Of a stretch of 64,000 bases of DNA, positions 8,496 through 52,063 are shown one piece after another. The notes under the pieces were generated by a model. The model was not told the origin of the DNA. It did no database searches and saw only the letters and a program-made list of their open reading frames with translations. Numbering within the stretch: position 1 is the stretch's first letter; the number at the start of each line of letters is the position of its first letter. The stretch covers positions 62,001 through 126,000 of the forward strand of contig CANXME010002185.1 of the NCBI GenBank assembly GCA_948144175.1, given 5' to 3'. A program made the translations under genes and the position numbers. This stretch comes from Closterium sp. NIES-65 (Eukaryota; Streptophyta; Zygnematophyceae; Desmidiales; Closteriaceae).

Positions 8496-9371
8496 CGTCG
8501 AGCCACTGCTCCGCCTTTAGGAATATGTGCTCCTCGATAACCTTCAGGACCTTCGCGGGTACTTCGCTCTTCGATCTTCCAAGGTAATAGTCACCCGGTT
8601 CCGTCGTGAAACACGCTTGCAACTGGATAACCCCGCGCGGGATGCCTGTGACGTATGACCAGCGCATCTCGTTCATGTCCCATTGACCCAGCTGCGCGAT
8701 GTTGTCGAGTTCACAGTTTTTGTCGGCGAGGATCTGTGCCGCAGGCCGTCGAAAGATATGTGTGACTTTCGACAGGATCCACTCCGCGCTTTTCATTGCC
8801 CAGGTAACCCATTTGGCATGAGTCGCGTACGGCAACTCGATCTTGTCCTTGTCGAAGAGGGCGAAGAACAGGTGCTTCCTTGACCAATTTTCCGGGTTGC
8901 TGAAATCCAAGGGGGACACGATCTTATCGTTGTTGTAGTGGAGCGGCACAAGGTCGAAAATGAAATGTATCCACATGAACACTGCCACGAAGCCGCACTG
9001 CCGGAAGTCCATGTGTCGAGTCAGGTACAGGTGGCCGAGCTTGTTGTCTTTGATGGTCCTCGAGTTGCGATAGGTGACCACGAGAACGTGGATCGACGAT
9101 TCCCCCTTGCTGTTCGTGATGGGCGGAAGGACGTGAGTGAACATATTGTAGTAGCAGATCTCGCGGATGCTTATCCCCCTGCCCAGCATGTGATGCGCCA
9201 TCAGGATCATCACCCTCACGGCCAAGGCCCTCCACAGCGACTGACTGGGGTAACTCATCGGCTCCCGAAAGTACTCCTTGGCCCAGTACGGCAGGATGTC
9301 TGAAACGAGAATGCGGAACTGCTCCTCCGTGTAAACATCGTCGAGCGAGCCCCGGTGTGGATCGACGCACT
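8496..9371 (-). CDS. Crypton-type tyrosine recombinase / Ndc10-like core exon
   Basis: The exon opens after a cag acceptor near 9372 with QCVDPHRGSLDDVYTEEQ and closes at a donor after WLDE near 8496. Its second half fits the Ndc10 domain II / Crypton tyrosine-recombinase fold: THIFRRPAAQ carries the box II H-x-x-R, GQWDMNEMRWSYVTGIPR matches the G-R/Q-W ... Y-x-T-x-x-P-R block that holds the nucleophilic tyrosine in Cryptons, and PGDYYLGRS follows as in fungal Cryptons. An upstream arginine (VVTYRNSR) may be box I. Such enzymes cut and rejoin DNA through a 3'-phosphotyrosine bond. Family assignment is by motif memory, not a search. The nucleotide signals around it look functional, but an upstream exon has an in-frame stop. 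Confidence 0.72.
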
Positions 9372-11876: not shown

Positions 11877-14800
11877 CTACACTATCTCCACTGCCTTTGC
11901 ACGGTGCATTTCAGATTCAATAAGAGACTGCTTATATCGAAGCATGATGAATCCCAGCTGGTCCAACGCAAAGTCGATCGCGTAAGCAGCAGCGAAGATA
12001 CCAATCAAGATGGAGAACACAATGTAGCACCACTGCAATCGACGAAGTGGGGATACGGGAAGGAAGGTGGGAAAGATAAGTTAGGGGGAAGGAACATGAG
12101 AGGAAATCGAGGGAACAAAACTAATGTAGCCACTTCACGAACGGCAACAAAATGAAGGGGGGGGGGGGGGGTGGAGAACGGAGGGAGAGAGGCACTGGTT
12201 ACTAACAAGCAGCAAGATATAACACGACACGAGCGATACAGTACAAGGAGACACACAGATTACCAGGAAGAAACCAAACAGTTAACTTGCAGAGTCAACC
12301 GTGTGAGGCTCCTCAAAAGACGGTTGCGGGACTCACATGGAGGTTGTAGCCGAATTGGCTGCTTGCAAGGTCAATCCCAAGGTACGTGTTGCTCCAGGCC
12401 ATCGCGACAATCATGAGTCAAGCCAACCACACACTATGCACGCAGCAACTTACATCGAGGTTGTAGCCGAATTGGCTGCTAGCAAGGTCAATCCCAAGGT
12501 ACGTGTTGCTCCAAGCCATTGCCACAATCGCCAGTCCCACCACCCAATGCAGCGCGAACCAATAGCGTCGCGACACGTGTCCCTTGACCGGCCTCAGCTG
12601 GCCTATGATTGGCTGGAGGACGATCAGCAGCAGCACGGCCAATCCCAGCCTGCCATGTGTCGACTGCAGGGAGCTCGACCCTGATTGGATGAATGCCATG
12701 ATGATTCCGACCAATGATAGCACGACAGCAAGGAGCATGATCCACTTGTGGGCGTTGAATGCTTGAGGCTTGGAAATCCAGGGTTTTACAATGGTTAACC
12801 CAGGGCCTATGGCCACTGGGGTAACTGCCCCTGCAAAACCTGCTGCCCCTGCTGCTACTGGCTTTTCTCCTCCATCTCCTGCTACCCCCAGTAAAAGCCT
12901 GTCCGGTTGAACCCTGTCCAGTTCTTTGCTTCCTTGCAAAATGGGCTCAACTGACCCATCCCCTCCCTTTGCTGCTTCTTCCCTTGACACTGCTGCTGCC
13001 GCTGCATCTGCAGGCTTATCCGCCAGAAATATCCTCGATATAAGCATGGCAGCAGGCATGAGAATGCCAAACGCTATAGTGAGAATCCACCCGTGTGCTG
13101 CGTAGACTGTCTCTGGATTGGTTTTCGATTTCCCTGACTCGACTGTGCCTGTAACGAAGTTGATTCTAATGGAGCCTCTGGTGGGTGGAGGGTGGTGAGA
13201 GGGAGGGGGGAAGGAGGAAGTGGGGGATTGGTTTTCGTTTCCCTGATTCGACTGTGCCTGTAACAAAGTTGATTCTAAAGGAGCCTCTGGCGGCTAGTGA
13301 GCAGGAAATGGGGGGCGTGGGAGGTGGAGAAGGGGGGAGTGGAAGGGAGATGAGGTGAGACAAACAGAACAGTATCAATTTCTGTCAATAGGAACTCTTG
13401 TGCCTCAAAAGTCAACTCTTGAGGCGCCTAAGAAACCGGGGCAGCGCAGGGGTCCGCCCAAGCATACTATAGCCATATCTTTCCCCCCCATGCCTTTGAG
13501 TCGACTCAGAAGCAGAAACCGGGGCAGCGCGGGGGCCCGCACAAGCATACTATTGCCATATCTTCTCCCCCCATGCCTGCCCACTCACTCATTGGGCCCG
13601 TAATCGGCCAATTCCTGCGAGTCAGAGCGCGAGAAGGCCTATTGGCTTCCCATGCCTGTAACCGACTGGTTGGGCCAAGCAAGCCCCTTTCTCCCCAGCA
13701 CATGCCACTCACTCATTTGGCCCGTGGTCCTCCCAATGCTGTGAGTCAGAACGAGAGAAGTCCAAGAGCACCCAAGCCCAACCTAACCATACTATAGCCC
13801 CTAACCTTCTTCCCCCCCTGCCTTGCCACTCACTCGTTGGGGCCGTGGTCGTCCAGTTGCTGCGAGTCGGAGCAAGAGAAGGCCCAGAGCACGCTGGTGC
13901 TCACCCATGCTAGCATGTCACTCACTTTTCGAACACAGAACGGATATGCCCCCCCTTTTAAGCTGGCCCACTCACTCATTTGGCCCGTGGTCGTCCAGTT
14001 GCTGCGAGTCGGAGCGAGAGAAGGCCCAGAGCACGCTGGTGGCGCCGCTGCTGCTGATGGGGACCACTCCCACTGAGAGGGGTCGCTCAAAGCTGCAATT
14101 GTGTTGCGGGTGAGGTGAGGTGAAGCCACGGGGGGACAAAAAGTAGGCAGAGTTGAATAGGAGGGAGGCAAGGCGAGAGAATGCGAAGAGCATGTTGGTG
14201 GCGCCACTGCTGCTGATTGGGACAGAACCCACCGAGAGGGGTCGCTCGAAGCTGTGGGCGGGAGGTGAAGGGTGGATAAGATGGGGGAAGGGGGAGGGGT
14301 CGTCGGGCTTAGACCATGAGATGGCCCAGAGCACGCTTGTGGCGCCGCTGCTGCTGAATGGGACAGACCCCACTGACAAGGGGCGCTCGAAGCTGCGCGC
14401 GGGGGGGGGGGGGAGGGGGGGAGGAGTGGGGGTGGTGTGGAGGATGGGGGAGAGGAAGGGAGGCAAGGGTGTGCGGGCTTAGACACTGAGAAGGCCCAGA
14501 GCACGCTGGTGGCGCCGCTACTGCTGATGGGCACGGCTCCCACCGAAACTGGCCGGTCGGAGCTGGGAGAGGTGATGGAGGATGGGGGAGAGGGGGGGAG
14601 CAGGGAGGGGTGTGCGTGCTTAAACTCTGAGAAATGATGCTGCACGGTGTTTTTGAGAATCCTCAAACACACCATGCTTAGACTCTGAGAAACCCCAGAG
14701 CATGCTGGTGGCGCCGCTGCTGATCGATCGGGACCGCACCCACTGAGAGGGGGCGCTCAAAGCTGGGGGCGCGGGGGGGAGGTAAGGATGGGGGGTGGGG

Positions 14801-17800
14801 AGAGTGGGAGGGGTGCGCTGTGCTCTCCTGGTGGCGCCATTGCTGCTGATTGGAACCGATTCCACTGAGAGGGGCTGCTGATTGGGACCGATTCCACTGA
14901 GAGGGGCTGCTGATTGGGACCGATTCCACTGAGAGGGACTGCTGATTGGGACCGATTCCACTGAGAGGGGCTGCTGATTGGGACCGATTCCACTGAGAGG
15001 GACTGCTGATTGGGACCGATTCCACTGAGAGGGACTGCTGATTGGGACCGATTCCACTGAGAGGGACTGCTGATTGGGACCGATTCCACTGAGAGGGGCT
15101 GCTCTAAGCTGGGGTGAGGATAGGGGTGGGATCAGGTTGGGGTAGGGGAAGGGAAAGGACCAAGGGAAAGGCATGATCTGGCCTGAGATCGCCCAGAGCA
15201 CGCTGGTGGCGCCATTGCTACTGATGGGGACGGTTCGCACCGCAAGGGAGGGGTGGCTTGGAGCTGCAGTTGCGTTGCAGGTGTGGTGCAGAGGGAAGGA
15301 ATGAAATGGGGAGAGATGGAAGTGAAGAAAGAGAGGCGAGGCAAGAGAAGGCCCAGAGCACGCTGGTGGTGCCGCCACTGCTGCTGCTGCTGCTGATGGG
15401 GGAGGGGACTGAACTGAACGCACTGCGAGGGGGCGTTCAAACACTGAATCCGACTGCTCAGGCTGAATAAGGAAATCTGAAAAACACCCCACACTCACGT
15501 GATTGTTGTTCGGCCATTTGCTGTGGTGGTCGTCGTGTTGGTCAGCTCGAACGATGACGTCAGCGCCACGTCAGACAGGCCGTAGCCGCTCATGTGATAG
15601 GCTCCCACCGCCGCCCCGTTGGCGAGAGTGCCAGGTGGCAGATTCCCAATGGCTGCGTCAGCGGGGTACATCTTGCTGCTCTTGGACCATCCGATCGCCA
15701 CCCAACCAGACGTCGCCACTTCAGCAGCCATTGCTACTGTGTTTGCCCCGGTCTTCCAATGGAGGATGAAACTGGAAAAAAGGGAGGGCAAGAAGGGGGT
15801 GAGGGGAGAGATGGGGGAGAGCAAGGGCAGGAAAGGGCGTCAAGAAATCACTCCAGCAGCCATAGCTACTGTGGTTGCCCCCAGCTTTCTAATGAGGATG
15901 AACCTAACAGGAGTCGTGAAGTGGATGGGGGGAGAAAAGAGAAGGGGGGCGGATTGCTGAGAGGGACTTTTGAGAATTCTCAAAAGTCACTCCCATATAG
16001 ATGGGGGGGAGAAAAGAGAAGGGGGGGGGGATTGCTGGTGAACGGGGGGGGCAGGAAGGAGCTATGGGGGGAGAGAATAAGGGTGGGGAGGATTAAAATC
16101 AAGAATTTGAGTGCAGGCTGCAGATAATATGTGATTGTAATGAGGGCTGGTGCACGTAGCAGGTAGCTGTGATACTATCTGTGTCAATGAAAACAGTATG
16201 AGGGATGGGCGAGGTGAAAAGCATGTGAGTGGGTGGGATGAGTTTTGAGACACTTTTTGAGGCGCCTCAAGAGCATGTGAGTGGGTGGGATGAGGTTTGA
16301 GACACCTCCAAACATGTGGATTTCTGAGGCGTCTCAAAACGTGTAGACCATGACACACTATCTGCGTGCATGATTCTATTCTGAGAGGAATGGGCAAGGT
16401 GACGAGGATATGAGTGGGGTGTCCGTTAGCTGATTAAGAAACATTCCAGAGAGCAGCAGTTTAAGGGAGAAGGTTTAGCAAAGGTGAAAACAGTTGTAGC
16501 ATGAGCAAGGAGGAATGGGCAAGGTGACGAGGATATGAGTGGGGTGTCCGTTGTGGCTACGAGGGGGCGGGTGGTGTGGTGGTATGAGAAACCAGCTTGA
16601 TTATTCTTCACTGCCCCTCCACTCACCACTGCCCCTCCACTCAATCTCTCCCTTTGAGCTGCACGGAGCAGGCATATCCCGGCAGAGTGGACGGCTGGCA
16701 CGCCTGGTTAGCACTCCCAGACGCAGCAGCAGCAGCTAATAATGTGACTTCTGAGTCGACCAGACAGCCACTTTTTCCTCTCACTCACTCTTTTCCTTTG
16801 AGCTGCACGGAGCAGGCATATCCCGGCCCGGCAGCGTGGACGGCTGGCACGCCTGGCTGCCAGAGTGCTTTGTCCTGGCTTGGCTTGGATACACCCAAGA
16901 ACAACAACAGCTTGCCTTGCAGAGGTCACTCACTCTTTTCCCTTGAGCTGCACGGAGCAGGAATAAACCGGCAGGGTGGACGGCTGGCACGCCTGGCTGC
17001 CACTCCCAGACGCAGCAGCAGCTGCTGACGTGGACCCCGATGATTGGTTCTCATCTTCCTCCTCTTCACCATCATCATCGTCGTCGTCATCATCATCATC
17101 ATCACCCCCATTGTCGTCGTCATCATTGTCGTCATCATCTGAGATTGAGGTGCCAGCAGCAGGTGCAGTCTGACACGTGAAGTCCACATTCATTGAACCT
17201 CTGGTTGTTGGGGGGAACGGGGAGAGGGAGGGGGGGGGGAGAAGACGGTGGCATAAGGGCAGGCGCACTCATTGAGTCTGACACGCAGGTGCAGTCTGAC
17301 ACGTTGAGTCCACATTCATTGAACCTCTAAAACTCACTCTCTCCCATATGCATTCATAAAAACTCTGAGCCTCACTCCTTGCCATCTACACTACATTCAT
17401 CCAACCTCAATAACTCACACGTTGTTGCCGTGAAAGGCCAGCTCAGTGGATTGAGGTCGTTTTTGAGGCGCCTCAAAAACGACCTCCTTGCCATCTACAC
17501 TACATTCATCCAACCTCAATAACTCACGCGTTGTTGCCGTGAAAGGCCAGCTCAGTGGATCCAGACTCAGAGAAGACTCAGAGAAATCTAGTTTTGAGGC
17601 GCCTCAAAACTCTGAGCCTCACTCCTTGCCATCTACACTACATTCATCCAACCTCAATAACTCACACGTTGCTGCCGTGAAAGGCCAGCTCAGTGGATCC
17701 AGACTCAGAGAAAGCCCAGATGAGGCTGTTGGTGCCGCTGAAATTTACCCAAATCCCTCCCCCCCCCCCCCCCCCCCGCCTCCTCTTCTCCTCACCCACT

Positions 17801-19294
17801 CCTTCACTCACTCCCTCCTTCACTCACGCATTGTTGCCGTGAAAGGCCAGGTCAGTCGATCCAGACTCGGAGAAGGCCCAGATGAGGCTGTTGGTGCCAG
17901 TGAAGCTGACTGGTACGGCCCCTCCGTCCCCTTCTGACCGGGCGAACCTGCAGAGCAGGCAGGAGGGGAGAAGAGAGTGCGTTGGAAGGGGAAAAGCCCA
18001 GACGATGCTGCTGCTGCCACTGAAGATCACTGGTATGGGCCCTCTGTCTCCTTCTGATTGAGAGAACCTGCAAGCAGGAGAGGGTTGGTTGGAGAAGGTT
18101 TGAGATGGACCTACGTAGCCTTGGGATAGGAAGAACCTGTGGGCCGGAGCAGGAGGACCAGAAAGTGAACACGAAGGAAGCGTTTTAGTCGACTAAACAA
18201 CCGCCTCATCACTTACGTAGTCTTGGGATAGAAAGAACCTGCGGGCAGGAGCAGGAGGAGCAGGAAGAGCAGAAGGATCAGCAGGAGCAGGAGGAGCAGG
18301 AAGAGCAGAAGGATCAGCAGGAGCAGAATCAGCTGAAGAGCTGTTGGAGCAGGAGCAGGAAAGCAATCATAAGCAGCAGAGGGAACACCATATCAATCGT
18401 ACAGGCCTCTACCATACCCCTCACTCACCTCATGCCACTATCCTCACCTCATAATTGTGCCGCCACCATTACTCGCAGCTGTCAACTCAGGCGTCCCAAT
18501 CGAGAACCCATCAGAAGGCGCCACGTCAGACTGGCTGTATCCGCTGATGTGATACGCGCCGACGCTGCTTCCCGGAAGGTTCCCGACCACGCAATCCGCG
18601 GGGTACATACGGCCGCGGTTTGCCGTCCAGCCGACGGAGAACCAGCCGGACTCGGCCGCACTGGCGGGTTTGGCTTCTAGTGCGAACTGCAGGCGCGAGG
18701 CGTTGAGGGTCCAGTGCAGCATTAGGCTGGGAGGAGAGACCGGGGAGGGAGCGTGGGGAGACAGACAGAGGGGGACAGGAGGGGAAGGAGGGGGGAAGGA
18801 GAGGGGAAATGGGAAAGAGAACGGAGGGTTGGGGATGGGCAAGAGGGAAGAGAGTGAACAATGGACGGAGAACCAGCCGGACTCGGCACCACTGGCAACT
18901 ATTTGCTATGATAGAAGCCGGTCTCGATCGCGTCCATCATCTCGGTCGGTCTGGTTTTCTAGTGATTCGACGATCCAGATGTCTTTCTGATTGTACCCGT
19001 CGTTCCGTTGAGTCAACGCTAGTCAAGTGAAAGAATCCAGAGGCGGCGCATATAACCGAGTGAGTTACTGCCCTGAGCGGTGCTTCGGATTGTTTCCGTA
19101 TGTTAATGAAGTCACTTACATGCAGCAGCACTCTCGACTTACCCATTTCCCGACAGATCTACGGAATTCGCGAAGCCTGGAAGGGACGACGGTTCGCAAG
19201 ACGAGGCGTAATCTACGGAGGCACCGACCACCAAGACGACCATCATGGCACGTGCCAAGCACGCTTCGACCACGTGCGCCGTTGATCGAATCAT
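11877..19294 (-). CDS. Two-DOMON cytochrome b561 protein (CYBDOM), 8 exons
   Basis: Proposed exons, minus strand: 19294-19143, 18726-18448, 17947-17828, 17200-16934, 15771-15499, 14092-13976, 13177-12454, 12032-11877. All have GT-AG borders; the first six junctions are phase 2 and the last phase 0, giving 695 residues and a stop at 11879-11877. Residues 1-51 hold a hydrophobic signal-like segment (MMVVLVVGASV) then CEPSSLPGF. DOMON 1 (exons 1-3; LHWTLNA, GRMYPADCVVG, FHGNNAGS) and DOMON 2 (exons 4-6; CQPSTLPVYSC, LHWKTGA, SKMYPADAAIG, DHGPNEGS) share the same exon layout, separated by a long Asp run. Exons 7-8 form five hydrophobic helices with histidines near 431, 546, 577 and 613, as expected for b561 haems. 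The loop after helix 1 is unusually long (about 85 residues). The family moves electrons across membranes, often from ascorbate. Start codon and exon 6 choice are the weakest points. Confidence 0.8.
12337..12417 (-). repeat. Partial copy of exon 7, 3' end with splice donor
   Basis: About 80 bp repeat the end of exon 7 (12454-12530; residues WSNTYLGIDLASSQFGYN). This copy lies on the intron side, has a few changes, and keeps a donor (cat|gtgagt). Used alone it would be an alternative end of the exon. Confidence 0.85.
13218..13292 (-). repeat. Partial copy of exon 7, 5' end with splice acceptor
   Basis: The segment repeats the first part of exon 7 (RINFVTGTVESGK) immediately upstream of it and keeps the cag acceptor and the AGGCTCC exon start. 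Confidence 0.85.
13433..13575. repeat. 62-bp intronic duplication with palindrome at the joint
   Basis: Copies start at 13433 and 13514 (gaaaccggggcagcgc ... ccatatctt). Between them sits tgagtcgactca (13497-13508), a perfect 12-bp palindrome. A near-palindrome, cttgaggcgcctaag (about 13418-13432), precedes the first copy. Confidence 0.8.
13580..13900 (-). repeat. Three partial copies of exon 6, 3' end with splice donors
   Basis: Downstream of full exon 6 (13976-14092) there are truncated copies at about 13583-13650, 13703-13770 and 13829-13893. Each resembles the exon end (FSRSDSQQLDDHGPN), and the donor motif actcac (gtgagt on the minus strand) lies beside each. The third copy is best preserved (SDSQQLDDHGPNE). 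Confidence 0.8.
14160..14770 (-). repeat. Four partial copies of exon 6, 5' end with splice acceptors
   Basis: Upstream of full exon 6 there are copies near 14185-14255, 14325-14393, 14495-14567 and 14692-14763. They encode FERPLSVGSVPISSSGAT-like residues, and each is preceded on the minus strand by an intact acceptor (cacag, cgcag, cccag, cccag). They run out of exon identity before the exon end, so none has the donor side. The 14692 copy has an insertion that breaks the frame. Confidence 0.85.
14646..14673. repeat. Near-palindrome between duplicated segments
   Basis: Arms ggtgtttttgag and ctcaaacacacc pair with one mismatch. They separate two copies of tgcttaaactctgagaaa (14618 and 14675). 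Confidence 0.75.
14849..15104 (-). repeat. 32-bp minisatellite, eight units, derived from exon 6
   Basis: Units start at 14849, 14881, 14913, 14945, 14977, 15009, 15041 and 15073. Each holds attgggaccgattccactg followed by agaggg(g/a)ctgctg, and is derived from the exon 6 start (FERPLSV, here PLSVESVPIS). Because 32 is not a multiple of 3, the array shifts frame at every unit and is unlikely to be coding. Confidence 0.95.
15180..15455 (-). repeat. Two further exon 6 5'-end copies
   Basis: Copies near 15190-15275 (SLAVRTVPISSNGATSVLWA) and 15350-15450 (FERPLAVRSVQS, expanded by extra CTG units) lie upstream of the minisatellite. They sit between it and exon 5, and both retain acceptor-like cag at their 5' edge. 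Confidence 0.8.
15842..15905 (-). repeat. Partial copy of exon 5, 5' end
   Basis: Residues resembling FILHWKTGANTVAMAAE reappear upstream of exon 5 as FILIRKLGATTVAMAAG, then stop. The exon's acceptor region is duplicated with it. Confidence 0.8.
15922..16042. repeat. Intronic duplication around a 24-bp perfect palindrome
   Basis: Copies of gatggggggagaaaagagaa...ggattgctg (15922-15964 and 15999-16042) flank 15965-15988, which reads gacttttgagaa then its exact complement. Confidence 0.9.
16221..16305. repeat. 33-bp duplication around a GGCGCC palindrome
   Basis: Copies at 16221-16253 and 16273-16305 differ by one base. Between them is a 19-bp spacer containing ttgaggcgcctcaa, a perfect 14-bp palindrome. 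Confidence 0.9.
16640..16867 (-). repeat. Two partial copies of exon 4, 3' end
   Basis: Copies at about 16640-16736 and 16783-16867 repeat the exon 4 end (SGSQACQPSTLPGY...), downstream of the full exon at 16934-17200. The second keeps an adjacent gtgagt donor. An imperfect palindrome (tgagtcgacca) lies between them. Confidence 0.85.
17279..17325 (-). repeat. Partial copy of exon 4, 5' end
   Basis: The start of exon 4 (GSMNVDFTCQ...) is repeated upstream (tcattgaacctct), but the acceptor base pattern has decayed (cctctaaaac). Confidence 0.75.
17375..17745 (-). repeat. Three partial copies of exon 3, 3' end, joined by long palindromes
   Basis: Three copies carry the exon 3 end (SESGSTDLAFHGNN) with its donor, at about 17375-17452, 17484-17583 and 17612-17745. 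The first joint holds a 34-bp perfect palindrome (17453-17486, centre GGCGCC) and the second a 22-bp one (17590-17611, same centre). Full exon 3 is at 17828-17947. Confidence 0.9.
17980..18262 (-). repeat. Three partial copies of exon 3, 5' end
   Basis: Copies at about 17990-18070, 18105-18161 and 18213-18262 each start with an acceptor-like ctgcag or ctgtgg edge and decay before the exon end. A palindrome, tttagtcgactaaa (18184-18197), lies between the last two. Confidence 0.8.
18250..18365. repeat. Imperfect short tandem repeat
   Basis: Units of gcaggagcaggagga and aagagcagaaggatca alternate within the intron between exons 2 and 3. No coding role is evident. Confidence 0.75.
18863..18898 (-). 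repeat. Internal copy of a piece of exon 2
   Basis: The stretch ggacggagaaccagccggac repeats exon 2 near 18632-18670 (ESGWFSVGW). Unlike the other copies it contains no splice site. Confidence 0.7.
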
Positions 19295-20757
19295 GGTGGG
19301 TCGCCGGGTTCGTGGTTTCGCATATCGATTCATGATGATCTCTGGCAGAAGTGAAGGGGGGTTATGACGAGATTGTTAGGAAGCGAATAAGAATGCGGAC
19401 CGAGTCGCAGCTCGTAATGGAATATTTACTTTTTGCAACACAGCAGTAAAATGAGCGACTCTGCTCTGAATGCTCTACCGAGCGCGGCGAAATAGGACCG
19501 TGTGCGGTTGGCTTCACGGTTACGTGCGGTTGGCTTCATGGCTTCATGGAGACTGAGGGTTCGGCCTGGGGAAGGCGGGATCTGTTTGGATCTAGACCGC
19601 TAATTGAAGGAAAATGCATTTATGCCGCGCTGATTTGGGTTAGTTGTGGGTATACACCCTCTTTCTCGCCGTTGTGAATTTGGTTATAGTGAAGTCAAGA
19701 TGGGAAAAGCGCGGTTAACGGTGGTTTAATTAAGTATCGGTACGGTTCAATCAGATAAATCAAAGATAACAAGGTTTTCCACCAGTTCGGCACAGTTCAG
19801 TGTAACGAGAAAGAGGGTGTAGTTGGGTTGAGTGGGTACGGGCCGATGGAGGAGAGGGAGTGAGCGTTTAATTTTGCTCAATACCCTACCCAACCGTTCT
19901 AAACTGTTACTTGAAATTAGAATTGCTCAGTGCATCCCACTGACGGTGACAGCGGGGCTTTATCGAAGGGAGGCTGAATTGACTGTGTGAAGTGCGTGGC
20001 AGCGGAGGCGACGCGCGTGCAGGATGGTAATTGGCTGTTGCCAACGAAGGGATGGGCATGTGCCCGTAACCACAAATGACCAATGCGACCCGGGTCCTGA
20101 AGGCTTCGACACATATTACAGATAGCGTCGGTGGTGTTTGATTGGACAACAGTAGCGTCGCGCGCTATCAATGGCAACGCTGCACACCACACGCAAAAAG
20201 ACCGACGACCATGCTTCTCATCGCTATCCCGTAGAGGCTGTTTCTCTAAATCTTCTTCATGTATGTTTCCTTTCACCATGTCTCTAAGGAATTTTTCAGA
20301 TTCCTTAATTGGTCACTCGACTTTTATAAGACCAGGCTCGGTCCGACGACCTCGCCTCCCGAGCGTACCTCGTGTCGCCTTCAGGATTTGGCAACCCCGG
20401 GCCAGAAACCAACCATCGTGACCCTGCGGACCCCGCCTGGCTAGCTAGTTATTTGATTAGTAGGTGTAACCACTTCCGCGATATTGCATTCTGCACACTC
20501 TTTCACCTGACAACTCATAACAATGTCAAAATCCTGACCACTAGATCATTTTAAAAAAACGTCAGTGACAAAAAACACTGTTTTTCCTTACTGGGGGTAA
20601 GTTGTTTCGTGTACAATCATGAATTTCGAAAATGCAAGTTCGGCAGGTTTGCTTGATACCAAACCAGCCTCGCATCACTTTCAGTTTCCCTTCGCCAACC
20701 TGCACCCAAGCTCGTGTTCTCGAGGTTCTCGCCTTGCTAAGGTAGTCGCTATATTAT
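19295..20757. other. Sequence without a clear gene
   Basis: The DNA upstream of the DOMON-b561 gene probably holds its promoter. A minus-strand frame at 20279-19917 (MVKGNIHEEDLEKQ...) has a start, moderate length and a possible donor (gtaatatg near 20120). I cannot assign it to a family and give it low weight. The rest is of lower GC and shows no repeat or domain. Confidence 0.4.
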
Positions 20758-22543: not shown

Positions 22544-25500
22544 TCAAGAGGAGAGCAAGTGAGGCAAGACAGACACAAGACCCAGCTGGGTGCAGAAGCG
22601 CTGATGGTCACAAGGCGCAAGTGCCTTGGTGAACACATCAGCAGTGTTGGCCTCAGAGGCCACGTACGCAAGTCGCAACTGACCACGCTGCTGCAGCTCA
22701 CGAGCAAGGAAGTAGCGGAGAGCAATGTGCTTCGTTCTGTGCTCCAAGCGCTGCTCTCGACACAAGGCCAGCATAGCCTTGTTGTCTACGTACAGCACTG
22801 GAGGAGAACGAGGCGGCTCTCCAAGGTCAGTCAGCAGGTAGGTGAGCCAGCGAAGCTCCTGTGCAGCCATGGCCCCGGCGTAGATCTCAGCCTCACAACT
22901 GGAGCCGAGAACCGAAGACGAGCGAGTAGACCGCCACGAGACAGAGCCGGAACCAAGGCTGAAGGTGTAACCCTGTGACGACCGCTGCGTAGCCTGGTCG
23001 TCAGCCCAAGAAGCGTCCGCGTGGCCGGCAAGGACCACTGGACTCCGCCCTCCAAGCACTAGCCCCATGCCTGACGTACTGCACAGGTAGCGCAATACCC
23101 TCTTCGCTGCAGCCATGTGCTCCGGTCTGTGTCTCCCAGGAGCAACATAGCGTGCAAGAATGCTCAGAGGGTATGCAAGGTCAGGTCGTGTGCAGGTCAT
23201 CAGGTACATGAGGCAGCCAACAAGCTCCGCATACGGACCACTCGACTCTACGGACTCATCCGAAGGCAGAGCTGAGAGTGAGTGGCGAGTAGGCAGAGGA
23301 GTGGCCTGAGGCGAGGAGTACGTGAAGCCGAAGCGCTGAAGGACCTGCTGCACCATGTGTGACTGAGTCAAGGTAATGGTGCGGCGTGCTCTGTCCCGAG
23401 TGATCTGCAAGCCAAGGTAGCTGCGCAGTTCACCCAGGTCTGTGCACGTGTGTCTCTTCAACAGCTCGGACTTCACGTAGGCGAGTCCAGCAGTGTCCGC
23501 TGTGGCAAAGACCAGGTCGTCGACGTACACGAGGATGTAGAACGGCGGCAGGGAAGTGTCGGTGCGAAGAAACAGCGACGGGTCAGCAGTAGAAGGAGCA
23601 AACCCAAGAGCCGCAAGCGTAGTCCTCAGTGTGTCGTGCCACTCACGCGGTGCCTGGCGGAGACCGTAGACTGGCCGTCGGAGGCTCCACTGGGTGCCAG
23701 GAGGGAAAGTCCCAGTGAAGCCAGGTGGACGGCGAAGCCAGATCTCCTCGTGCAGGCTACCCTGCAAGAACGCAGTGCTGAAGTCGAGAGAGTGAAGCTC
23801 GTAGTCGCGCTGAGCGGCTATGTGCAGCAGCACCCGAAGAGTAGTCATCTTCGGGGTGGGGGAGAAGGTCTGAAAGTAGTCAACTCCCTGCCGCTGACTG
23901 AAGCCACGAGCAACGTACCGTGCCTTGAAGACAGGTGGAGAGCCCGGCGGCCGCTTCACCCTGAAGATCCACATGCCACTGACGATGTTCGCCCTAGGAG
24001 GGGGAACCGCGTCAACGTAGGTGCCTGTGGACTTCCAGGAAGCCATCTCTGCATCCATAGCTGCCTGCCACTGAGAGGAGTAGGGACCCTCTACGGCCTC
24101 CGCGTAAGAACGCGGAGTCGGGATGTCTAGTGCATCCGGGTCTCCCTCAGGGGCAAGCAGTACAGACGCGAGATGAGGTGAAGCAGCCGCTAGACACAGT
24201 AACTCCTCCTGCCTGTCCTCTAGGACGTCCGTGCCAAGAGCACACTCACCCCCGACGGACGGAGGACAGACAGACGCAGACTCAGCAACAAGACTAGCAG
24301 CGTAGTCGAGACGACAGCGAGCAGCAAAGTCGACGAGCTCAGCGACTAGAGCAGACGCAGCAGTGGACTCAAAAGAGGGGTCAGTGACGACAGTAGCAAG
24401 CAGACGCGTGACAGTGGGACTGGCAGCACGAAGAGAGTCCGACTCAGGGTCGGCAAGCGCAGGAAGAGAGGACTCAGGAGGAGAAGGCAAAGGGGCACGC
24501 AGAGGAGCAGTGGACGGACGTAAAGACATCCGGTGCGTGCCAGGGACAGGAGGAGGACGCTGACGCGAACTGCGACCACTAGCGCGAGCAGCACGAACAG
24601 GCGACGCGGGACGAGACGCAGGCTCACGACGCTCAGCAAGACCTCCAGTAGGACCAGTGTAAGGAGAGGGAGCAGGTAGTGGAGAGGAAGGCTCCAGTAG
24701 GGGCTGCGACTGGACCGGCGGTGGACCCTCTACTGGAGGAGAAAGACCAAGAACCTGCTGAAGGAGCGGAACGAAGTACGGCCGAGGCCGCGCGGCAGCT
24801 CCAGACTCAGCAGGGACAGAACCAGCACCCTCAGCGACAGCACCAGCGCCACCCACACCTCCAGCGGCAGGACCAACAGCAGCAGGCTCAGCACGAACGC
24901 CCTCAGCAGCTCCAGCTCCAGGAGGACCCACAGGGCCAGCAGCTCCGGGACCGGCTGCACCCGCACCCTCGACGGTCGAAGAAGCTCCAGCTCCAGCTCC
25001 AGCAGCACCTCCAGACTCAGCAGCACGCCTCCAGCGGCGAGCGAACCACTCGCGCAGCTCCTGTGGAGAGCGGGGCTCCCGGCGAGACGCAGCAGCAGGA
25101 GAAACCCCAGGCTCAGCAGCTCCAGACGCAGCACCCCCAGGCTCAGCAGCTCCCAGCTCAACACCCCCAGGCTCAGCAGCTCCCGACCCAGCACCCCCAG
25201 ACCCAGCACCTCCAGGCACAGCACCCCCCGGCTCAGCACCCCCAGGCTCCGCACCCTCCGCAGTAGCACCCTCAGGCCCAGCACCCCCAGCAGTAGCACC
25301 CCCAGGCTCAGCACCCCCGTGCACAGCACCCCCAGAGTCAGCACCCCCAGGCTCAGCACCCGCAGCAGCACCAGAGTCACCAGTAACCTCGACCGGGTCA
25401 ACGGCGTCTACCTGGGACACACCTGAGGGGGCAGGAACCTGAGGGGGGAGGGGGTCTACCGGGGGGGGAACCGGCACAAGGAAGTCCGGGGGAGGGGGGA

Positions 25501-28471
25501 GGGAAGGAGTGCGGTAGGGGAAGAGACGGTAGAAGGGGACTGACTCGTCGAACGTGACGTCCTGGGAGGACAGAACACGACGAGAGGAGGGGTGGTAAAA
25601 CTGCCACCCTGGGGCGTCAGTGGGGAAGCCAAGGAAGACACAGGGAGCAGCACGAGGGGACAGCTTGTCCGCAGACAAGTCGCGGACAAACGCCCGAGAT
25701 CCCCAGACACGGAACACAGACGCATCGCCAACCTTCCCCGTCCACAGCAAGGCTGGGGACATCGCTGGCCGAGAGACCCGGGGATGAAGGTTGAGCTGAT
25801 GCGCCGCGTACCTCACCGCAAACGGCCACAGAAAATGGGGGGCAGCCGCATGCATCATGGACGTACGAGCGACATCCATGACCATGCCAATGCGGCGCTC
25901 AGCAATCCCATTTTGCTGTGGTGAGTCCGGAAGCGTGAAGGTCTGGCGGATCCCCCGTGCACGACAGTAGTCTCGCAGAAGGTGAGAAGAGAACTCTCCG
26001 CCTCTGTCAGAGTGCAGACGCAGAACAGGAAAGTCCGAGCCGAAGCTCTTCCTGAGCTGGAGACGAGCCTCGCGGATCCAGTCGATCAGCACCTCAGTGA
26101 CCGCACCCTTGCTGCGCAAGGGGAGGACTGTGGTGTAACGCGAGTAGTCGTCAACCACCAACAGGAAGTAGCGCTCGTAACCCTGCCCACGGACGGGGGC
26201 AGGGCCCCACACATCCATGTGAAGCGTCTGCAGGGGAGCCTCTGTCGGGGGGAAGTGGGAGGAGTGAGGAGTAGCCCGGAGGCGACCCTCGACACAGGGG
26301 ACACAGGAAGGTCCTGGCCCGGAGGGGAGAGGAGGGAGAGACTGGGGAAGACCAGAGACAAGGACACGGGAAGCCATGCTCCGAAGACGGGGCAAGGAGG
26401 GGTGGCCAAGACGGTGGTGCCACAGGAGAGTCTCGTGAGACAGGAGGCGACAAGAATAGGGGGCAGACTCAGGACCTGACCGGGACGCAGCAGCAAGTAC
26501 CTGACCCGACGCAGCCACCTGACCAGACGCAGGGACAGGAGGAGACTCAACGGTCAGGGTGTAGAGACTCGACCCCGGCCGACGTGAGAACGTGGCCAGG
26601 TGTCGGCCTGTGCGAGCCTCGGTGCAGTGGGTCACCCGCTGACGCGCAGGAGTGAACTGGTGAACACCCCCATCCTGCAGGTCCGCTCCACTCACCAAGT
26701 TCGTAGAGAACGAGGGAAGGTACAGACCCGACAGGGTGCCCGAAGGGGCAGCCGGACAGGGGAGGACAGTGGAGAAGTGAGACAGGACAGGACCCCCAGA
26801 GGGGTCAGCAAGGGAGACCGCAACCGGCCTGGCGAGCGGCGAAAGGGTAGTGCGGTCTCGAAAGAAGGAGCGAGAAGCTCCGGAGTCAAGTGTGAAAGTG
26901 AGGGAGGACGAGGACGACTCAGTACCTGAGAGCGCAGTCTCACCAGTACCTGAGAGCGCAGACGCACTGGCACCTAGAGCAGCAGCCTCACAAGCACCTA
27001 GCGCAGCAGTACCAATGCCCGGGTCGGGCTGAAAACACCGGTAACCCTCATGCTCCTCACTATAATCCACAACATACATAGCAGTAAGGATAGCATCAAA
27101 ATCAAGATCAAAGATCGCTACACCAGCCCTGAGAAGCTCATCCCAGCGAGGGATCTCACTAGCCCCAGGGAATTGCTGACGCCAAGCGTCCGTCAGGCGG
27201 CCAAAGCAGCGCTGGGTGGCGTGGGCACCCCCACACTGCTCACCCGCGCGGTCGCCGGAACGAAGAACGTAGGTGCAGGGACCAGTACCCCCACCCCTCT
27301 GACGCCCAGCGTACCACTCACGAAGCTGCTGAGGCGAAGGGATGTCCCGCGAGCGCTGCTGCTGCTGCCGGTGCGAGCGCTGGCCACCACCACCGCCGCT
27401 ACGCTGCTGGGTACCACCCCGACCCGCTCCACCTCCTCCACCACTACTGCCTCCTCCGCTGCCGCCTCCACTGCCTCCACCTCCGCCGCCTCCACCTCCG
27501 CCGCTGCCTCCACCACCACCGCTGGCACCACCACCACCGTCTCCGCCGCTGCTGCCGCCACCACCACCACCACCCCCGCCACTAGTCCCGCCGCCACCCC
27601 CACTCCCTCCGCCGCCACCCCCACTCCCTCCGCCGCCACCGCCGCCACCGCCACCGCCCCCTCCAGCTCCACCCGCGCCCTTGCCTCCCTTGCCCTTGCT
27701 GGAGCGACGTCTCCCACTAGGGGCAGACGCCGCGCCGACCGACTCAAGACCAAGCAGGTCGGCAGCAGCAGCAGAGGCAACAGAGGGCAGCAAGGGGGAA
27801 GGAGAGCACCCCTCAAAGATGGGGGTGCGAGGGTCACCACGAGAAGCACCTACAGCGACTATGCTCTTCTCCGCTGCAAGGAGGGCCTTCTCGAGGAGGT
27901 CGACGGTGAGAGTGGTGGGACAGACTGCGAGAAAGTGGTCCCTGACGACGCGAAGGGAGTCAGGGAGGCGTGCGACTACGTAGTAGAGAGCGATGTACAT
28001 GGGGGGGGGGTTCTTAGCGCAGAACTCAGCAGGAAGGGCGGCGCGGTAGCGAGTGTCACTAGTGCGGAGGTGCGTAATGAGGTCAGCGACAGTGGGAAAG
28101 GCAGAGAGGTCAGGAAAGAGGTAGGGAAGCATGAGACGGCTCAGTGCGGCAGTGGCAGGGGAGGAGTAGCGCGCAACTACAGCGTCGTACAAGGTCTGAG
28201 CACTCTTGTACTGACTAAAGTGCGCACGCTCAGAGGTAGGGAGGTGGCGACGCACAGCAAGACGTGCAGCAGCATCGCGGGTGGCCCACTTAGAGCGGAC
28301 AGCGGGATCAGCATCAGCAGCAGGGGCAGGAGAGGCGCCAGAGGTGAGGTCAAAGAGAGAAAGGTCGTCAGCCCTGTCGCACTGTAAGAACAGCTGCAGG
28401 TCGTCTAACCAGACCTCAAAATCAATGGCGCGACCCTCAGCGTCAAAGGCTAGGACACTAGGGGTAGCCAT
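22544..28471 (-). CDS. E2 Copia gag-pol polyprotein
   Basis: The polyprotein has about 1975 residues from MATPSVLAF; an in-frame ATG eight codons upstream is also possible. In order: gag (LFLQCDRAD, YKSAQTLYDAVVARYSSP), Gly-rich tract (about residues 270-380), variant zinc knuckle C-x3-H-x4-C (about 410), protease LDSGAS (about 529), integrase zinc region WHHRLGH...CVPC, catalytic D (HMDVWGP, about 752), D (HSDRGGEF, about 819) and E (IAERR) spaced D-x35-E, GGAEP-type repeat spacer (about 1030-1130), RT with YVDDLVF (about 1650), and RNase H (HADASW, CEAEIYAG, YVDNKA). All catalytic motifs are present. It copies element RNA to DNA and integrates it. Gag and Pol share one frame, as in many plant Copia elements. 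Confidence 0.96.
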   Translation of the reverse strand: MATPSVLAFDAEGRAIDFEVWLDDLQLFLQCDRADDLSLFDLTSGASPAPAADADPAVRSKWATRDAAARLAVRRHLPTSERAHFSQYKSAQTLYDAVVARYSSPATAALSRLMLPYLFPDLSAFPTVADLITHLRTSDTRYRAALPAEFCAKNPPPMYIALYYVVARLPDSLRVVRDHFLAVCPTTLTVDLLEKALLAAEKSIVAVGASRGDPRTPIFEGCSPSPLLPSVASAAAADLLGLESVGAASAPSGRRRSSKGKGGKGAGGAGGGGGGGGGGGGGSGGGGGGSGGGGGTSGGGGGGGGGSSGGDGGGGASGGGGGSGGGGGGGGGGSGGGSGGGSSGGGGGAGRGGTQQRSGGGGGQRSHRQQQQRSRDIPSPQQLREWYAGRQRGGGTGPCTYVLRSGDRAGEQCGGAHATQRCFGRLTDAWRQQFPGASEIPRWDELLRAGVAIFDLDFDAILTAMYVVDYSEEHEGYRCFQPDPGIGTAALGACEAAALGASASALSGTGETALSGTESSSSSLTFTLDSGASRSFFRDRTTLSPLARPVAVSLADPSGGPVLSHFSTVLPCPAAPSGTLSGLYLPSFSTNLVSGADLQDGGVHQFTPARQRVTHCTEARTGRHLATFSRRPGSSLYTLTVESPPVPASGQVAASGQVLAAASRSGPESAPYSCRLLSHETLLWHHRLGHPSLPRLRSMASRVLVSGLPQSLPPLPSGPGPSCVPCVEGRLRATPHSSHFPPTEAPLQTLHMDVWGPAPVRGQGYERYFLLVVDDYSRYTTVLPLRSKGAVTEVLIDWIREARLQLRKSFGSDFPVLRLHSDRGGEFSSHLLRDYCRARGIRQTFTLPDSPQQNGIAERRIGMVMDVARTSMMHAAAPHFLWPFAVRYAAHQLNLHPRVSRPAMSPALLWTGKVGDASVFRVWGSRAFVRDLSADKLSPRAAPCVFLGFPTDAPGWQFYHPSSRRVLSSQDVTFDESVPFYRLFPYRTPSLPPPPDFLVPVPPPVDPLPPQVPAPSGVSQVDAVDPVEVTGDSGAAAGAEPGGADSGGAVHGGAEPGGATAGGAGPEGATAEGAEPGGAEPGGAVPGGAGSGGAGSGAAEPGGVELGAAEPGGAASGAAEPGVSPAAASRREPRSPQELREWFARRWRRAAESGGAAGAGAGASSTVEGAGAAGPGAAGPVGPPGAGAAEGVRAEPAAVGPAAGGVGGAGAVAEGAGSVPAESGAAARPRPYFVPLLQQVLGLSPPVEGPPPVQSQPLLEPSSPLPAPSPYTGPTGGLAERREPASRPASPVRAARASGRSSRQRPPPVPGTHRMSLRPSTAPLRAPLPSPPESSLPALADPESDSLRAASPTVTRLLATVVTDPSFESTAASALVAELVDFAARCRLDYAASLVAESASVCPPSVGGECALGTDVLEDRQEELLCLAAASPHLASVLLAPEGDPDALDIPTPRSYAEAVEGPYSSQWQAAMDAEMASWKSTGTYVDAVPPPRANIVSGMWIFRVKRPPGSPPVFKARYVARGFSQRQGVDYFQTFSPTPKMTTLRVLLHIAAQRDYELHSLDFSTAFLQGSLHEEIWLRRPPGFTGTFPPGTQWSLRRPVYGLRQAPREWHDTLRTTLAALGFAPSTADPSLFLRTDTSLPPFYILVYVDDLVFATADTAGLAYVKSELLKRHTCTDLGELRSYLGLQITRDRARRTITLTQSHMVQQVLQRFGFTYSSPQATPLPTRHSLSALPSDESVESSGPYAELVGCLMYLMTCTRPDLAYPLSILARYVAPGRHRPEHMAAAKRVLRYLCSTSGMGLVLGGRSPVVLAGHADASWADDQATQRSSQGYTFSLGSGSVSWRSTRSSSVLGSSCEAEIYAGAMAAQELRWLTYLLTDLGEPPRSPPVLYVDNKAMLALCREQRLEHRTKHIALRYFLARELQQRGQLRLAYVASEANTADVFTKALAPCDHQRFCTQLGLVSVLPHLLSS

Positions 28472-28559
28472 GGTGACGACAGCGACGCAGTGCAAGCAGT
28501 AGGGAAAGAGCTCGCAGTGTCAGTGGGACAGTGCTCACCAGGCAGGGCAGGTCGTGCAG

Positions 28560-49331: not shown

Positions 49332-50506
49332 ATGGCTACCCCCAGTGTTCTCGCTTTTGACGCTGAAGGTCGAGCCATTGACTTTGAGGTTTGGGTAGAT
49401 GACCTGCAGCTTTTCCTACAGTGCGATAGGGCAGACGGTCTTTCCCTCTTTGACCTCAACTCTGGTGCTTCCCTTGCCCCTGCTGCCGATGCCGACGCCA
49501 CTGTTCACTCCCAGTGGGCCACTCGCGATGCTGCTGCACGTCTTGCTGTGCGTCGCCACCTGCCTAACACTGAGCGCGCGCACTCTAGTCAGTACAAGAG
49601 TGCTCAGACCTTGTACGACGCTGTCGTTGCACGCTACTCTTCCCCTGCAACTGCTGCACTGAGCCGCCTCATGCTACCGTACCTCTTTCCCGACCTTGCT
49701 GCCTTTCCCACAGTCACTGACCTCATTACGCACCTTCGCACTAGGGACACTCGCAACCGCGCCGCGCTTCCTGCTGAGTTCTGCGCCAAGAACCCCCCCC
49801 CCCCATGTACATCACTCTCTATTATATAGTCACCCGCCTCCCTGACTCCCTTCGCGTAGTCAGGGACCACTTCCTCTCAGTCTGTCCCACCACTCTCACT
49901 GTTGACCTCCTACAGAAGGCCCTCCTAACAGCGGAGAAGAGCATAGTCGCTGTAGGAGCCTCTCGTGGTGACCCTCGCACCCCCATCTTTGAGGGGCGTT
50001 CCCCTTCCCCCCTGTTGCCCTCTGTTGCCTTTGCTGCTGCGGCCAACCTCGTTGGTCTTGAGTCGGTCGGTGCGGCGTCTGCCCCTAGCAGGAGACGCCG
50101 CTCTGGCAAGGGCAAGGGGGGCAAGGGCGCGGGTGGGGCTAGCGGGGGTGGTGAAGGTGGCGGTGCAGGCGGCGGAGGGAGTGGGGGTGGCGGTGGGAGT
50201 GGTGGCGGGGGTGGAGGTGGCAGTGGCAGCGGCGGAGGCGGAGGCGGCGGTGGCGGTAGCGGTGGGAGCGGAGGCGGCGGTGGTGGTGGAGGTGGAGGCG
50301 GTGGTGGTGAAGGAGGTGGAGCTGGTCGGGGTGGTGCTTCGCAGCGGAGCGGCTACGGGAGTGGTCAGCGCCAGCAGCAGCAGCAGCGTTCTCAGGACAT
50401 CCCCCCTCCTCAGCAGCTCCGTGAGTGGTACACGCAGCGTCAGCGTGGTGGGGGTTTTGGCCCGTGCACCTACGTCATTCGCTCCAACGACTGCACGGGT
50501 GAGTAG
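49332..50506 (+). pseudogene. E4 gag, frameshifted
   Basis: MATPSVLAFDAEG starts at 49332. The frame is lost at 49793-49804, where 12 C stand in place of E2's 10, and resumes as MYITLYYIVTRLPDS from 49805. It continues through a Gly-rich tract (50120-50330) and QLREWYTQRQRG to a TAG at 50504-50506 that replaces the codon before the C-x3-H-x4-C knuckle (CGGAYPTQRC). Confidence 0.93.
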
Positions 50507-50662
50507 TGTGGGGGTGCTTACCCCACCCAGCGCTGCTTTGGCCGCCTGACGGACGCTTGGCGTCAGCAGTTCCCGGAGGCTAGTGAGATCCCCCGCTGGG
50601 GAGAGCTGTCTAGGGTAGGCGTAGCTATCTTTGATCTTGACTTTGATGCTATCCTTGCTGCC

Positions 50663-52039
50663 ATGTATGCTGTGACTATTAGTGATGAGGGTTACTGTTA
50701 CCGATGTTTCCCGCCCGACCCGGGCATTGGTACTGCTGCTCTAGGTGCTGGTGAGGCTGCTGCTCTAGGTGCCAGTGCGTCCGCGCCCTCAGGTGCTGGT
50801 GAGTCTGCGCTCTCAGGTACCACGTCGGCTTCGGCCTCCCTCACCTTCACACTTGACTCACGGGCTTCTCGCTCCTTCTTTCGAGACCGCACCACACTCA
50901 CGCCGCTTGGTCGCCCAGTTGCAGTCTCCATGGCAGACCCCTCTGGGGGTCCTGTCCTCTCTCACTTCTCCACTGTCCTCCCGTGTCCGGCTGCCCCCTC
51001 TGGCACCTTGTCTGGTCTTTACCTCCCCTCGTTCTCTTCCAACTTGGTGAGTGGTGCTGACCTGCAAGATACGGGGGTTCACCAGTTCACTCCTGCGAGT
51101 CAGCGGGTGACCCACTACACCGACGCTCGGACAGGCCGACACCTGGCCACGTTTACACGTCGGCCGGGGTCGAGCCTGTACACACTGACCACTACATCTC
51201 CTCCACTCCCTGCGTCTGGTCAGGTAGCTGCGTCGGGTCAGGTGTTTGTTGCAGCGTCCAGGTCTGGTCCTGAGTCTGCCCCCTGCTCGTGTCGCCTCCT
51301 GTCTCACGAGACTCTCCTCTGGCACCACCGTCTTGGTCACCCCACCCTGCCTCGTCTCCGAGGCATGGCCTCCCGTGTCCTTGTCTCTGGTCTTCCCCGG
51401 TCCCTCCCTCCCCTTCCTCCGGGGCGTGGTCCTTCCTGTGTCCCCTGTCTCGAGGGGCGGCTCCGGGTTGCCCCTCACTCCTCTCCGTTTCCCCCGACAG
51501 AGGCCCCGCTGCAGACGCTTCACATGGACGTGTGGGGCCCGGCCCGCGTCCGTGGACAGGGTCACGAGCGCTACTTCCTGCTGGTGGTTGACGACTACTC
51601 GCGTTACACCTCAGTCTTCCCCTTGCGCAGCAAGGGTGATGTCACTGAGGTGTTGATCGACTGGATCCGCGCAGCTCGTCTTCAGCTCAGGAGGAGCTTC
51701 AGCTCGGACTTTCCTGTTCTGCGTCTGCACTCTGACCGAGGCGGAGAGTTCTCCTCTGGCCTTCTTCGAGCCTACTGTCGTGCGCGAGGCATCCGCCAGA
51801 CCTTTACACTACCGGACTCTCCACAGCAAAATGGGATTGCTGAGCGCCGCATTGGCATGGTCATGGACGTCGCTCGTACGTCCATGATGCATGCGGCTGC
51901 CCCCCATTTTCTGTGGCCGTCTGCGGTTCGGTACGCGGCGCATCAGATCAACCTTCACCCCAGGGTCTCTAGACCGGAGACCTCCCCAGCCTTGCTGTGG
52001 ACGGGGAAGGTCGGTGATGCGTCTGCGTTCCGTGTCTGA
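50663..52039 (+). pseudogene. E4 protease and integrase N-terminal and core part
   Basis: MYAVTISDEGYCYRC leads to the protease. The usual LDSGAS reads LDSRAS, so the catalytic glycine position is altered. Then come WHHRLGHPTLPR, CVPCLEG, HMDVWGPARV, HSDRGGEFSS and QQNGIAERRIG. The frame ends in a TGA (52037-52039) in place of the tryptophan of FRVWGSR. Confidence 0.93.
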
Positions 52040-52063
52040 GGATCTCGGGCGTTTGTCCGCGAC

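What the first reader, a model, noticed from the sequence alone, without database searches (positions are those of the whole stretch)
12337..18262. Exons of one gene are bracketed by truncated copies of their own splice junctions
In the DOMON-b561 gene, partial copies upstream of an exon hold only its 5' end plus acceptor, and copies downstream hold only its 3' end plus donor. Exon 7: 13218-13292 upstream, 12337-12417 downstream. Exon 6: at least six upstream (14185-15450), three downstream (13583-13893). Exon 5: 15842-15905 upstream. Exon 4: 17279 upstream, two at 16640-16867 downstream. Exon 3: three upstream (17990-18262), three downstream (17375-17745). The side-specific rule is seen directly. 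It implies repeated tandem duplication of short segments spanning exon-intron borders, which multiplies splice sites. I know of no named system with this layout; the mechanism is inference.
Basis: seen in the sequence. Interest (0 to 1): 0.9.

Follow-up and report, generated by a model that had tools for sequence, protein, structure and literature searches.

The report
Exon-edge copies crowding Closterium introns
In three unrelated genes of the green alga Closterium, short tandem duplications have copied the edges of exons into the neighbouring introns, some with tiny palindromes at the joins, leaving surplus splice sites that the cell presumably has to ignore.

Summary
The rule is not peculiar to this gene: in it and two unrelated genes (BIG, XDH; 32 exons) 31 upstream copies reach the exon's 5' end and none the 3' end, 24 downstream copies reach the 3' end and none the 5' end; 11 are internal, none is a whole exon. 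Shuffled introns give 0. A second genomic copy of the gene, 98.3% identical in aligned bases, differs in several edge copies, so turnover is recent. Best explanation: frequent local tandem duplication of arbitrary segments (typical spacing about 140 bp); those crossing one exon border leave the exon intact, survive and necessarily look side-specific. About 30,000 palindromes TTTTGAG-NNNN-CTCAAAA occur in the genome (reversed control 4) and are over-represented between close repeats (13 of 43 spacers against 84 of 13,200 random stretches). They may be an undescribed insert coupled to duplication. One border-crossing duplication is published for potato; I saw nothing like this density or the palindromes in the listings searched. 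Use of the extra splice sites is untested.

The parts
11877..19333 (-). DOMON-b561 gene, 8 exons, 708 codons
   Evidence: homologues with Pfam DOMON and b561 domains
12331..12429 (-). Downstream copy of exon 7: 3' end plus donor
   Evidence: 86.9% over 99 nt
13225..13324 (-). Upstream copy of exon 7: 5' end plus acceptor
   Evidence: 82.5% over 103 columns
13579..13899 (-). Three downstream copies of exon 6 (13826-13899, 13705-13771, 13579-13639): 3' end plus donor
   Evidence: 87-95%
14173..15386 (-). Upstream copies of exon 6: six with acceptor (14173-14254, 14318-14396, 14488-14565, 14687-14765, 15067-15137, 15185-15288), a 32-bp array of partial copies (14842-15103) and an internal piece (15333-15386)
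15849..15935 (-). Upstream copy of exon 5: 5' end plus acceptor
   Evidence: 73% over 93 columns
16638..16862 (-). Two downstream copies of exon 4 (16781-16862, 16638-16737): 3' end plus donor
   Evidence: 88%
17285..17328 (-). Upstream copy of exon 4: 5' end plus acceptor
   Evidence: 95.5% over 44 nt
17405..17742 (-). Three downstream copies of exon 3 (17652-17742, 17514-17582, 17405-17451): 3' end plus donor
   Evidence: 85-87%; the outer two joins carry palindromes at 17461 and 17592
17993..18078 (-). Upstream copy of exon 3: 5' end plus acceptor
   Evidence: 80.5% over 87 columns
18864..18896 (-). Internal piece of exon 2 in intron 1, no splice site (exception to the rule)
   Evidence: 93.9% over 33 nt
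17461..17478 (.). Palindrome TTTTGAGGCGCCTCAAAA between exon-3 donor copies; a second at 17592-17609
16255..16272 (.). Palindrome between 33-nt direct repeats; related ones at 16295 and 16322
15968..15985 (.). Palindrome, AATT centre, between about 33-nt direct repeats
14651..14668 (.). Palindrome, AATC centre, between exon-6 acceptor copies
13431..13591 (.). Intronic tandem duplication, 83-bp spacing, with palindrome 13494-13511 between the copies
12301..12318 (.). Palindrome (2 mismatches) beside the exon-7 donor copy
16385..16552 (.). Intronic 43-bp direct repeat, 100% identical, no palindrome between
   Evidence: D17

Best explanation
This genome undergoes frequent local tandem duplication of segments of tens to a few hundred bases, typically spaced about 140 bp. 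A duplication that crosses one exon border gives [intron end + exon start] twice, or [exon end + intron start] twice: one copy stays joined to the rest of the exon, the other is a truncated exon edge with its own splice site. The intact exon keeps the gene working, so such duplications persist, and can expand into arrays by unequal exchange. Duplications inside exons are removed by selection; those inside introns survive but become unrecognisable sooner, because neither copy is constrained. The side rule is therefore a consequence, not a separate mechanism. Shown: the copies, the rule in three genes, differences in edge copies between two near-identical gene copies, intronic duplications. Inferred: origin by repair of staggered breaks (fill-in and joining, sometimes with filler or a palindrome), expansion by unequal exchange, and skipping of the extra sites because exons are recognised as acceptor-donor pairs.
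For: Copies and positions. Rule over 32 exons of three genes: 31 upstream copies with the 5' end and 0 with the 3' end, 24 downstream with the 3' end and 0 with the 5' end, 0 whole, 11 internal; 29 exon-side groups. Shuffled introns: 0 in 10 replicates. Copied exon parts match better (606 of 697 bases) than intron parts (337 of 494), as expected if only the real exon is constrained. Second gene copy: edge copies of exons 3 and 6 present in one, absent in the other; repeats within these 76 of 77 and 57 of 58 identical. Intronic repeats of similar size.
Against: No outgroup polarises the differences: each could be a loss. For the extra exon-3 acceptor copy the 66-nt filler matches (84% over 63 nt) a DOMON paralogue about 180 nt upstream of its exon 3, so loss in the window or conversion from the paralogue is possible. 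11 of 66 copies are internal and do not follow from a single border-crossing event; five of them lie in or next to the exon-6 32-bp array. AG and GT of the copies are slightly better kept than exon bases (65 of 68 against 606 of 697), which pure debris would not need. The break-repair step itself is untested.
Confidence: 0.8

Rival explanations
1. Palindromes drive the process: a short palindromic insert (mobile, or templated during break repair) arrives together with a duplication of its target, and edge copies are such target duplications that happened to span a border.
For: 30,327 exact cores against 4 for the reversed pattern. 13 of 43 spacers between close repeats hold a core against 84 of 13,200 random stretches. 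25 of 30 isolated palindromes have flanking repeats against 351 of 1200 control positions; 7 of 30 against 38 of 1200 abut within 2 nt. One exon-3 donor copy of the second gene copy comes with a one-arm insert where the window has a single repeat.
Against: Most edge copies of the three genes have no palindrome at the join; the BIG span holds 2 palindromes and the XDH span 4. 18 of 30 isolated palindromes do not have both repeats within 10 nt. Local repeats are common here even without palindromes. At 16255 the other gene copy keeps part of the palindrome, so it is not a clean empty site.
Confidence: 0.2
2. The copies are kept by selection as decoy or alternative splice sites that regulate splicing.
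For: AG kept in 33 of 34 bases and GT in 32 of 34 in copies reaching 10 nt into the intron. The deposited NIES-65 model P0005 includes exon-6 copies.
Against: The excess over exon bases is small and the copies are not independent. NIES-53 and NIES-68 proteins have single clean copies of these exons, and P0005 lacks the b561 domain, so it looks mispredicted. Edge copies differ between near-identical gene copies.
Confidence: 0.08
3. Plain replication slippage or unequal exchange makes the copies, with no break repair involved.
For: Arrays with similar spacing (BIG exon 8 upstream) and short-unit arrays that differ between the two gene copies (32-, 23-, 45- and 36-bp units).
Against: Slippage alone does not explain fillers and palindromes between repeats, nor a first duplication without pre-existing repeats.
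Confidence: 0.25
4. Assembly artefact.
For: Tandem repeats are a classic cause of misassembly; exact lengths of the long arrays may be wrong.
Against: The copies differ from each other and lie within 8 kb; NIES-65 was assembled from 110 Gb of reads with N50 30 kb, Arrow-corrected, with 10x scaffolding and Pilon (methods section of PMC10407611). The same layout is seen in three genes on three contigs and on the second contig of this gene.
Confidence: 0.02

Closest known systems
Tandem duplication crossing an intron-exon boundary, potato RdRp gene (Ma, Lan and Niu 2016, PMC4974935; abstract seen)
   Same: A duplicated segment spans an acceptor and part of the exon; the new intron takes in a previously exonic piece of the upstream copy.
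   Different: One event in one gene there. Here 29 exon-side groups in three genes, on both exon sides, in arrays, some with palindromes; no shown change of intron number.
Small tandem duplications from repair of staggered breaks (Nat Commun 2021, PMC8355091, passages seen; it cites Vaughn and Bennetzen 2014 and Schiml et al. 2016, not held)
   Same: Short direct duplications placed side by side, as expected from fill-in of overhangs and end joining.
   Different: Not shown experimentally here; duplications extend beyond 100 bp, recur at the same place, and a recurrent palindrome lies between some repeats.
Short inverted-repeat transposons (MITE-like) and introner elements (recalled)
   Same: Dispersed short sequence with inverted symmetry and flanking direct repeats.
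   Different: Direct repeats of variable length (23-173 nt), a 4-nt centre, unequal arms; no splice sites of its own seen.
Tandem whole-exon duplication (recalled)
   Same: Local copies of exon sequence in neighbouring introns.
   Different: 0 of 66 copies hold a whole exon.

Membership tests
Border-crossing tandem duplication | Copied segment includes exon sequence and adjoining intron across one splice site | tested here: met
   Intron parts up to the 150-nt limit with exon parts of 33-204 nt; several window-gene copies hold only 2-14 nt of intron
Border-crossing tandem duplication | Copies lie beside the source, direct orientation, on the side of the copied border | tested here: met
   31 and 24 copies by the rule, 0 against (only the same strand was searched)
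Intron gain by tandem duplication | A new intron is spliced out | not testable with these tools
   No RNA data here
Staggered-break repair duplication | Side-by-side duplication with short filler or microhomology at the join | tested here: inconclusive
   Fillers and one direct join seen; no systematic test of microhomology
TIR transposon / MITE | Target duplication of fixed length | tested here: not met
   Flanking repeats 23-173 nt for the 31 palindromes with both repeats within 25 nt
TIR transposon / MITE | Internal sequence between the inverted arms | tested here: not met
   1,130 matches with 5-20 nt between the arms (reversed control 108) against 30,327 with 4 nt; longer internal parts not searched
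Introner element | Element carries splice sites and makes an intron | not tested
   Palindromes of the window gene lie in existing introns and those of BIG and XDH are outside exons; new-intron formation was not examined
Whole-exon duplication | Both splice sites copied | tested here: not met
   0 of 66; 3 hits called 'both' came from XDH exon 1, whose ends were guessed

The most novel reading that the evidence does not exclude
Closterium carries an undescribed class of tiny palindromic inserts (core TTTTGAG-NNNN-CTCAAAA, about 15-56 bp, over 30,000 exact cores). Each arrives with a duplication of tens to more than a hundred bases of target. A possible route: both ends of a staggered break are extended with the same short templated sequence and then joined through its self-complementary centre (mostly TCGA, GCGC, ACGT or AATT); a one-arm product is seen in the second copy of this gene. 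Together with plain duplications this keeps remaking intron ends and multiplying splice sites, and makes the genome a natural test of how cells tell exons from decoys.
Probability: 0.35. Interest if true: 0.82.

Novelty: new variant of a known kind. Interest (0 to 1): 0.62.

Why it matters
Here the introns of ordinary genes hold close copies of real splice borders beside the real ones, and the copies differ even between two near-identical copies of one gene. How the true border is chosen can therefore be asked with RNA data that the strain's authors already used. The layout can also mislead gene prediction, as the deposited model of this gene suggests. If the palindromes are coupled to duplication, they point to a repair or insertion route that did not appear in the listings I searched (several listings were capped).

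Tried and rejected
Sharp ends at splice sites: in the window gene homology often stops within 2-14 nt of the splice site, which suggested copying of exon plus splice site alone.

Boundary test without gene models: donor-like hexamers at repeat edges were only weakly enriched (112 of 1251 against 84 of 1228), so exon-based counts were used instead.

My note after that nearly all palindromes are flanked by abutting repeats was too strong. With controls: repeats in 66 of 80 against 157 of 405 positions, both within 25 nt in 31 of 80 against 46 of 405; isolated ones 25 of 30 against 351 of 1200, both within 10 nt 12 of 30 against 71 of 1200. Local repeats are common here anyway.

The 16255 palindrome as an empty-site proof: rejected. 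The 66-nt exon-3 filler as new sequence: rejected; the listing was cut at 80 lines before reaching it, and the repeat shows a match in a paralogue. Nucleosome-sized units: suggested by the spacing, not tested.

Rows dropped before counting: one search used 15 BIG and 13 XDH exon guesses within 2.5 kb (BIG: 24 by the rule, 3 internal; XDH: 9 by the rule, 3 'both', 2 downstream 5' ends, 2 internal). The 3 and the 2 all belong to XDH exon 1, whose ends were guessed inside an array. One search left out that exon and BIG exons 2, 13 and 15 (no clear splice sites), moved one BIG exon start, cut the distance to 1.6 kb and excluded hits on other listed exons (none occurred). The first BIG match was used in neither. 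In one search an end counted as reached within 6 nt, so the 31 upstream copies include three pieces of the exon-6 array that start at exon position 6 and lack the acceptor.

The 264 kb sample is not random: most loci were chosen around palindrome hits. No other eukaryote genome was available for comparison, so the unusual density rests on no comparison made here.

Full report
What is there. The window lies in Closterium sp. NIES-65: two proteins named for that strain lie on a contig of 394,925 bases, the length of the window's contig C1887. Bases 19333-11877 (minus strand) hold a complete DOMON-b561 gene of 8 exons and 708 codons, all introns phase 2. Related proteins of NIES-53 (partial) and NIES-68 carry single clean copies of the middle exons. 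Two of the three claimed upstream exon-3 copies resemble each other but not exon 3 at E<=1e-3, and one exon-2 piece has no splice site.

Other genes. Two unrelated genes were found in loci fetched for another purpose: BIG, a SEC7 ARF-GEF (C6), and xanthine dehydrogenase (C9). Proteins of Marchantia, Physcomitrium and NIES-67, and of maize and NIES-53, served to place exons. With one pipeline on 32 exons of the three genes there were 66 copies within 1.6 kb: 31 upstream reaching the 5' end, 24 downstream reaching the 3' end, 0 of the opposite kinds, 11 internal, 0 whole. They fall into 29 exon-side groups of a possible 64; 21 of 32 exons have at least one (counted). Ten replicates with shuffled introns gave 0. 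Three of the 31 are array pieces that reach within 6 nt of the exon end but lack the acceptor. The earlier, looser run with its five deviant hits is told in Tried and rejected.

What makes them. Homology often continues into the intron, e.g. 150 nt of intron plus 54 nt of exon at 97% upstream of BIG exon 8, so the unit is a segment straddling the border. Exon parts are kept better (606 of 697 bases) than intron parts (337 of 494), as expected when only the real exon is constrained. Successive copies are spaced 32-246 bp, median 141 (26 spacings). Direct repeats also occur wholly inside introns of this gene (13431-13591, 16385-16552) and widely in the other loci. Hence the process looks general, and the side rule follows from geometry plus selection for an intact exon.

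It is recent. Most DOMON matches in the genome come in near-identical pairs on two contigs. The second copy of this gene (C2122, L036) is 98.3% identical over 5541 aligned bases, gaps aside. It has an extra exon-6 acceptor copy that reads as a tandem duplication (57 of 58 matching bases in the exon part), with a 144-bp insert and a CACCT expansion beside it. It has an extra exon-3 acceptor copy (76 of 77) separated by a 66-nt filler, 83% pyrimidine. That filler matches a DOMON paralogue (84% over 63 nt; L035 about 8793-8855), some 180 nt upstream of its exon 3, so this difference may be a loss in the window or a conversion. It also has an extra exon-3 donor copy with 31 nt resembling one palindrome arm, a 45-bp repeat-palindrome unit about 21 times where the window has a single repeat, and a 23-bp array of about 26 copies. 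The window in turn has seven more 32-bp units, and a repeat-palindrome-repeat at 16255 for which the other copy is not a clean empty site. Without an outgroup each difference could be a gain or a loss.

The palindromes. TTTTGAG-NNNN-CTCAAAA with up to 2 mismatches occurs 9 times in the window, all nine between 12301 and 17609, inside this gene (expected 0.14). Genome-wide there are 30,327 exact matches against 4 for the reversed pattern, and 1,130 (control 108) with 5-20 bases between the arms. In the window and loci L016-L035 (up to 1 mismatch) the centre is TCGA 28, GCGC 23, ACGT 18, AATT 4 and others 8, of 81. Outer arms vary: GTGAC/GTCAC is common, some have locus-specific near-perfect halves up to 28 bp, and arms can be unequal. 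Cores are over-represented between close direct repeats: 13 of 43 spacers against 84 of 13,200 random stretches. Of 30 isolated ones 25 have flanking repeats against 351 of 1200 control positions, and 7 of 30 against 38 of 1200 abut within 2 nt. So the link is clear but not universal, and most edge copies have no palindrome.

Splice sites. In the 34 copies reaching at least 10 nt into the intron, AG is kept in 33 of 34 bases and GT in 32 of 34. This is a little above exon bases and the copies are not independent, so it proves no use. The deposited NIES-65 model P0005 strings several exon-6 copies together and lacks the b561 domain; I take that as misprediction. How the cell skips the copies is inference: exon definition, since an edge copy lacks its partner site.

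Known and new. One tandem duplication across an intron-exon border is published for potato (PMC4974935, abstract), and small tandem duplications from staggered breaks are described (PMC8355091, passages). The Closterium genome paper (PMC10407611: abstract, assembly section, passages) has no occurrence of 'palindrom' or 'pseudogene' in its main text; its methods make mis-assembly unlikely. Searches for the combination gave nothing that fitted by title or start of abstract, in listings that were partly capped. I therefore call it a new variant of a known kind, with the palindromic inserts as the open and possibly new part.

Noticed in passing
window 12301-17609; genome-wide: Family of short palindromes TTTTGAG-NNNN-CTCAAAA, 30,327 exact copies in 874 Mb, none of the nine window matches in the Copia-rich remainder of the window.
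   Followed up: partly
L036:1960-2103: 144-bp insert at the exon-6 acceptor of the second gene copy, flanked by TTGCA and bringing its own TTGCAG acceptor; 91 bp of it match a locus on C9 at 90%. Possibly a small mobile element that rebuilds an intron end.
   Followed up: no
L036:286-1229 and L036:2798-3395: A 45-bp repeat-palindrome unit about 21 times and a 23-bp unit about 26 times, where the window has single or few units.
   Followed up: partly
window 11877-19333: All seven introns are phase 2, and exons 2-3 and 5-6 encode two DOMON copies, so exon sets could be duplicated without frameshift.
   Followed up: no
P0005 and P0018 (NIES-65, contig C1887): Deposited protein models seem to include edge copies: P0005 repeats exon-6 pieces, P0018 repeats the exon-2 5' part twice.
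   Followed up: no
G000 contig pairs such as C1887/C2122, C501/C1682, C43/C1688: DOMON loci come in near-identical pairs on two contigs, a ready tool for dating insertions and duplications in this genome.
   Followed up: partly
window 22544-28495, 49332-55273, 57972-61018: Long open frames with Copia-type polyprotein sequence beside GC-rich 15-60-bp tandem arrays; named from the sequence by eye.
   Followed up: no
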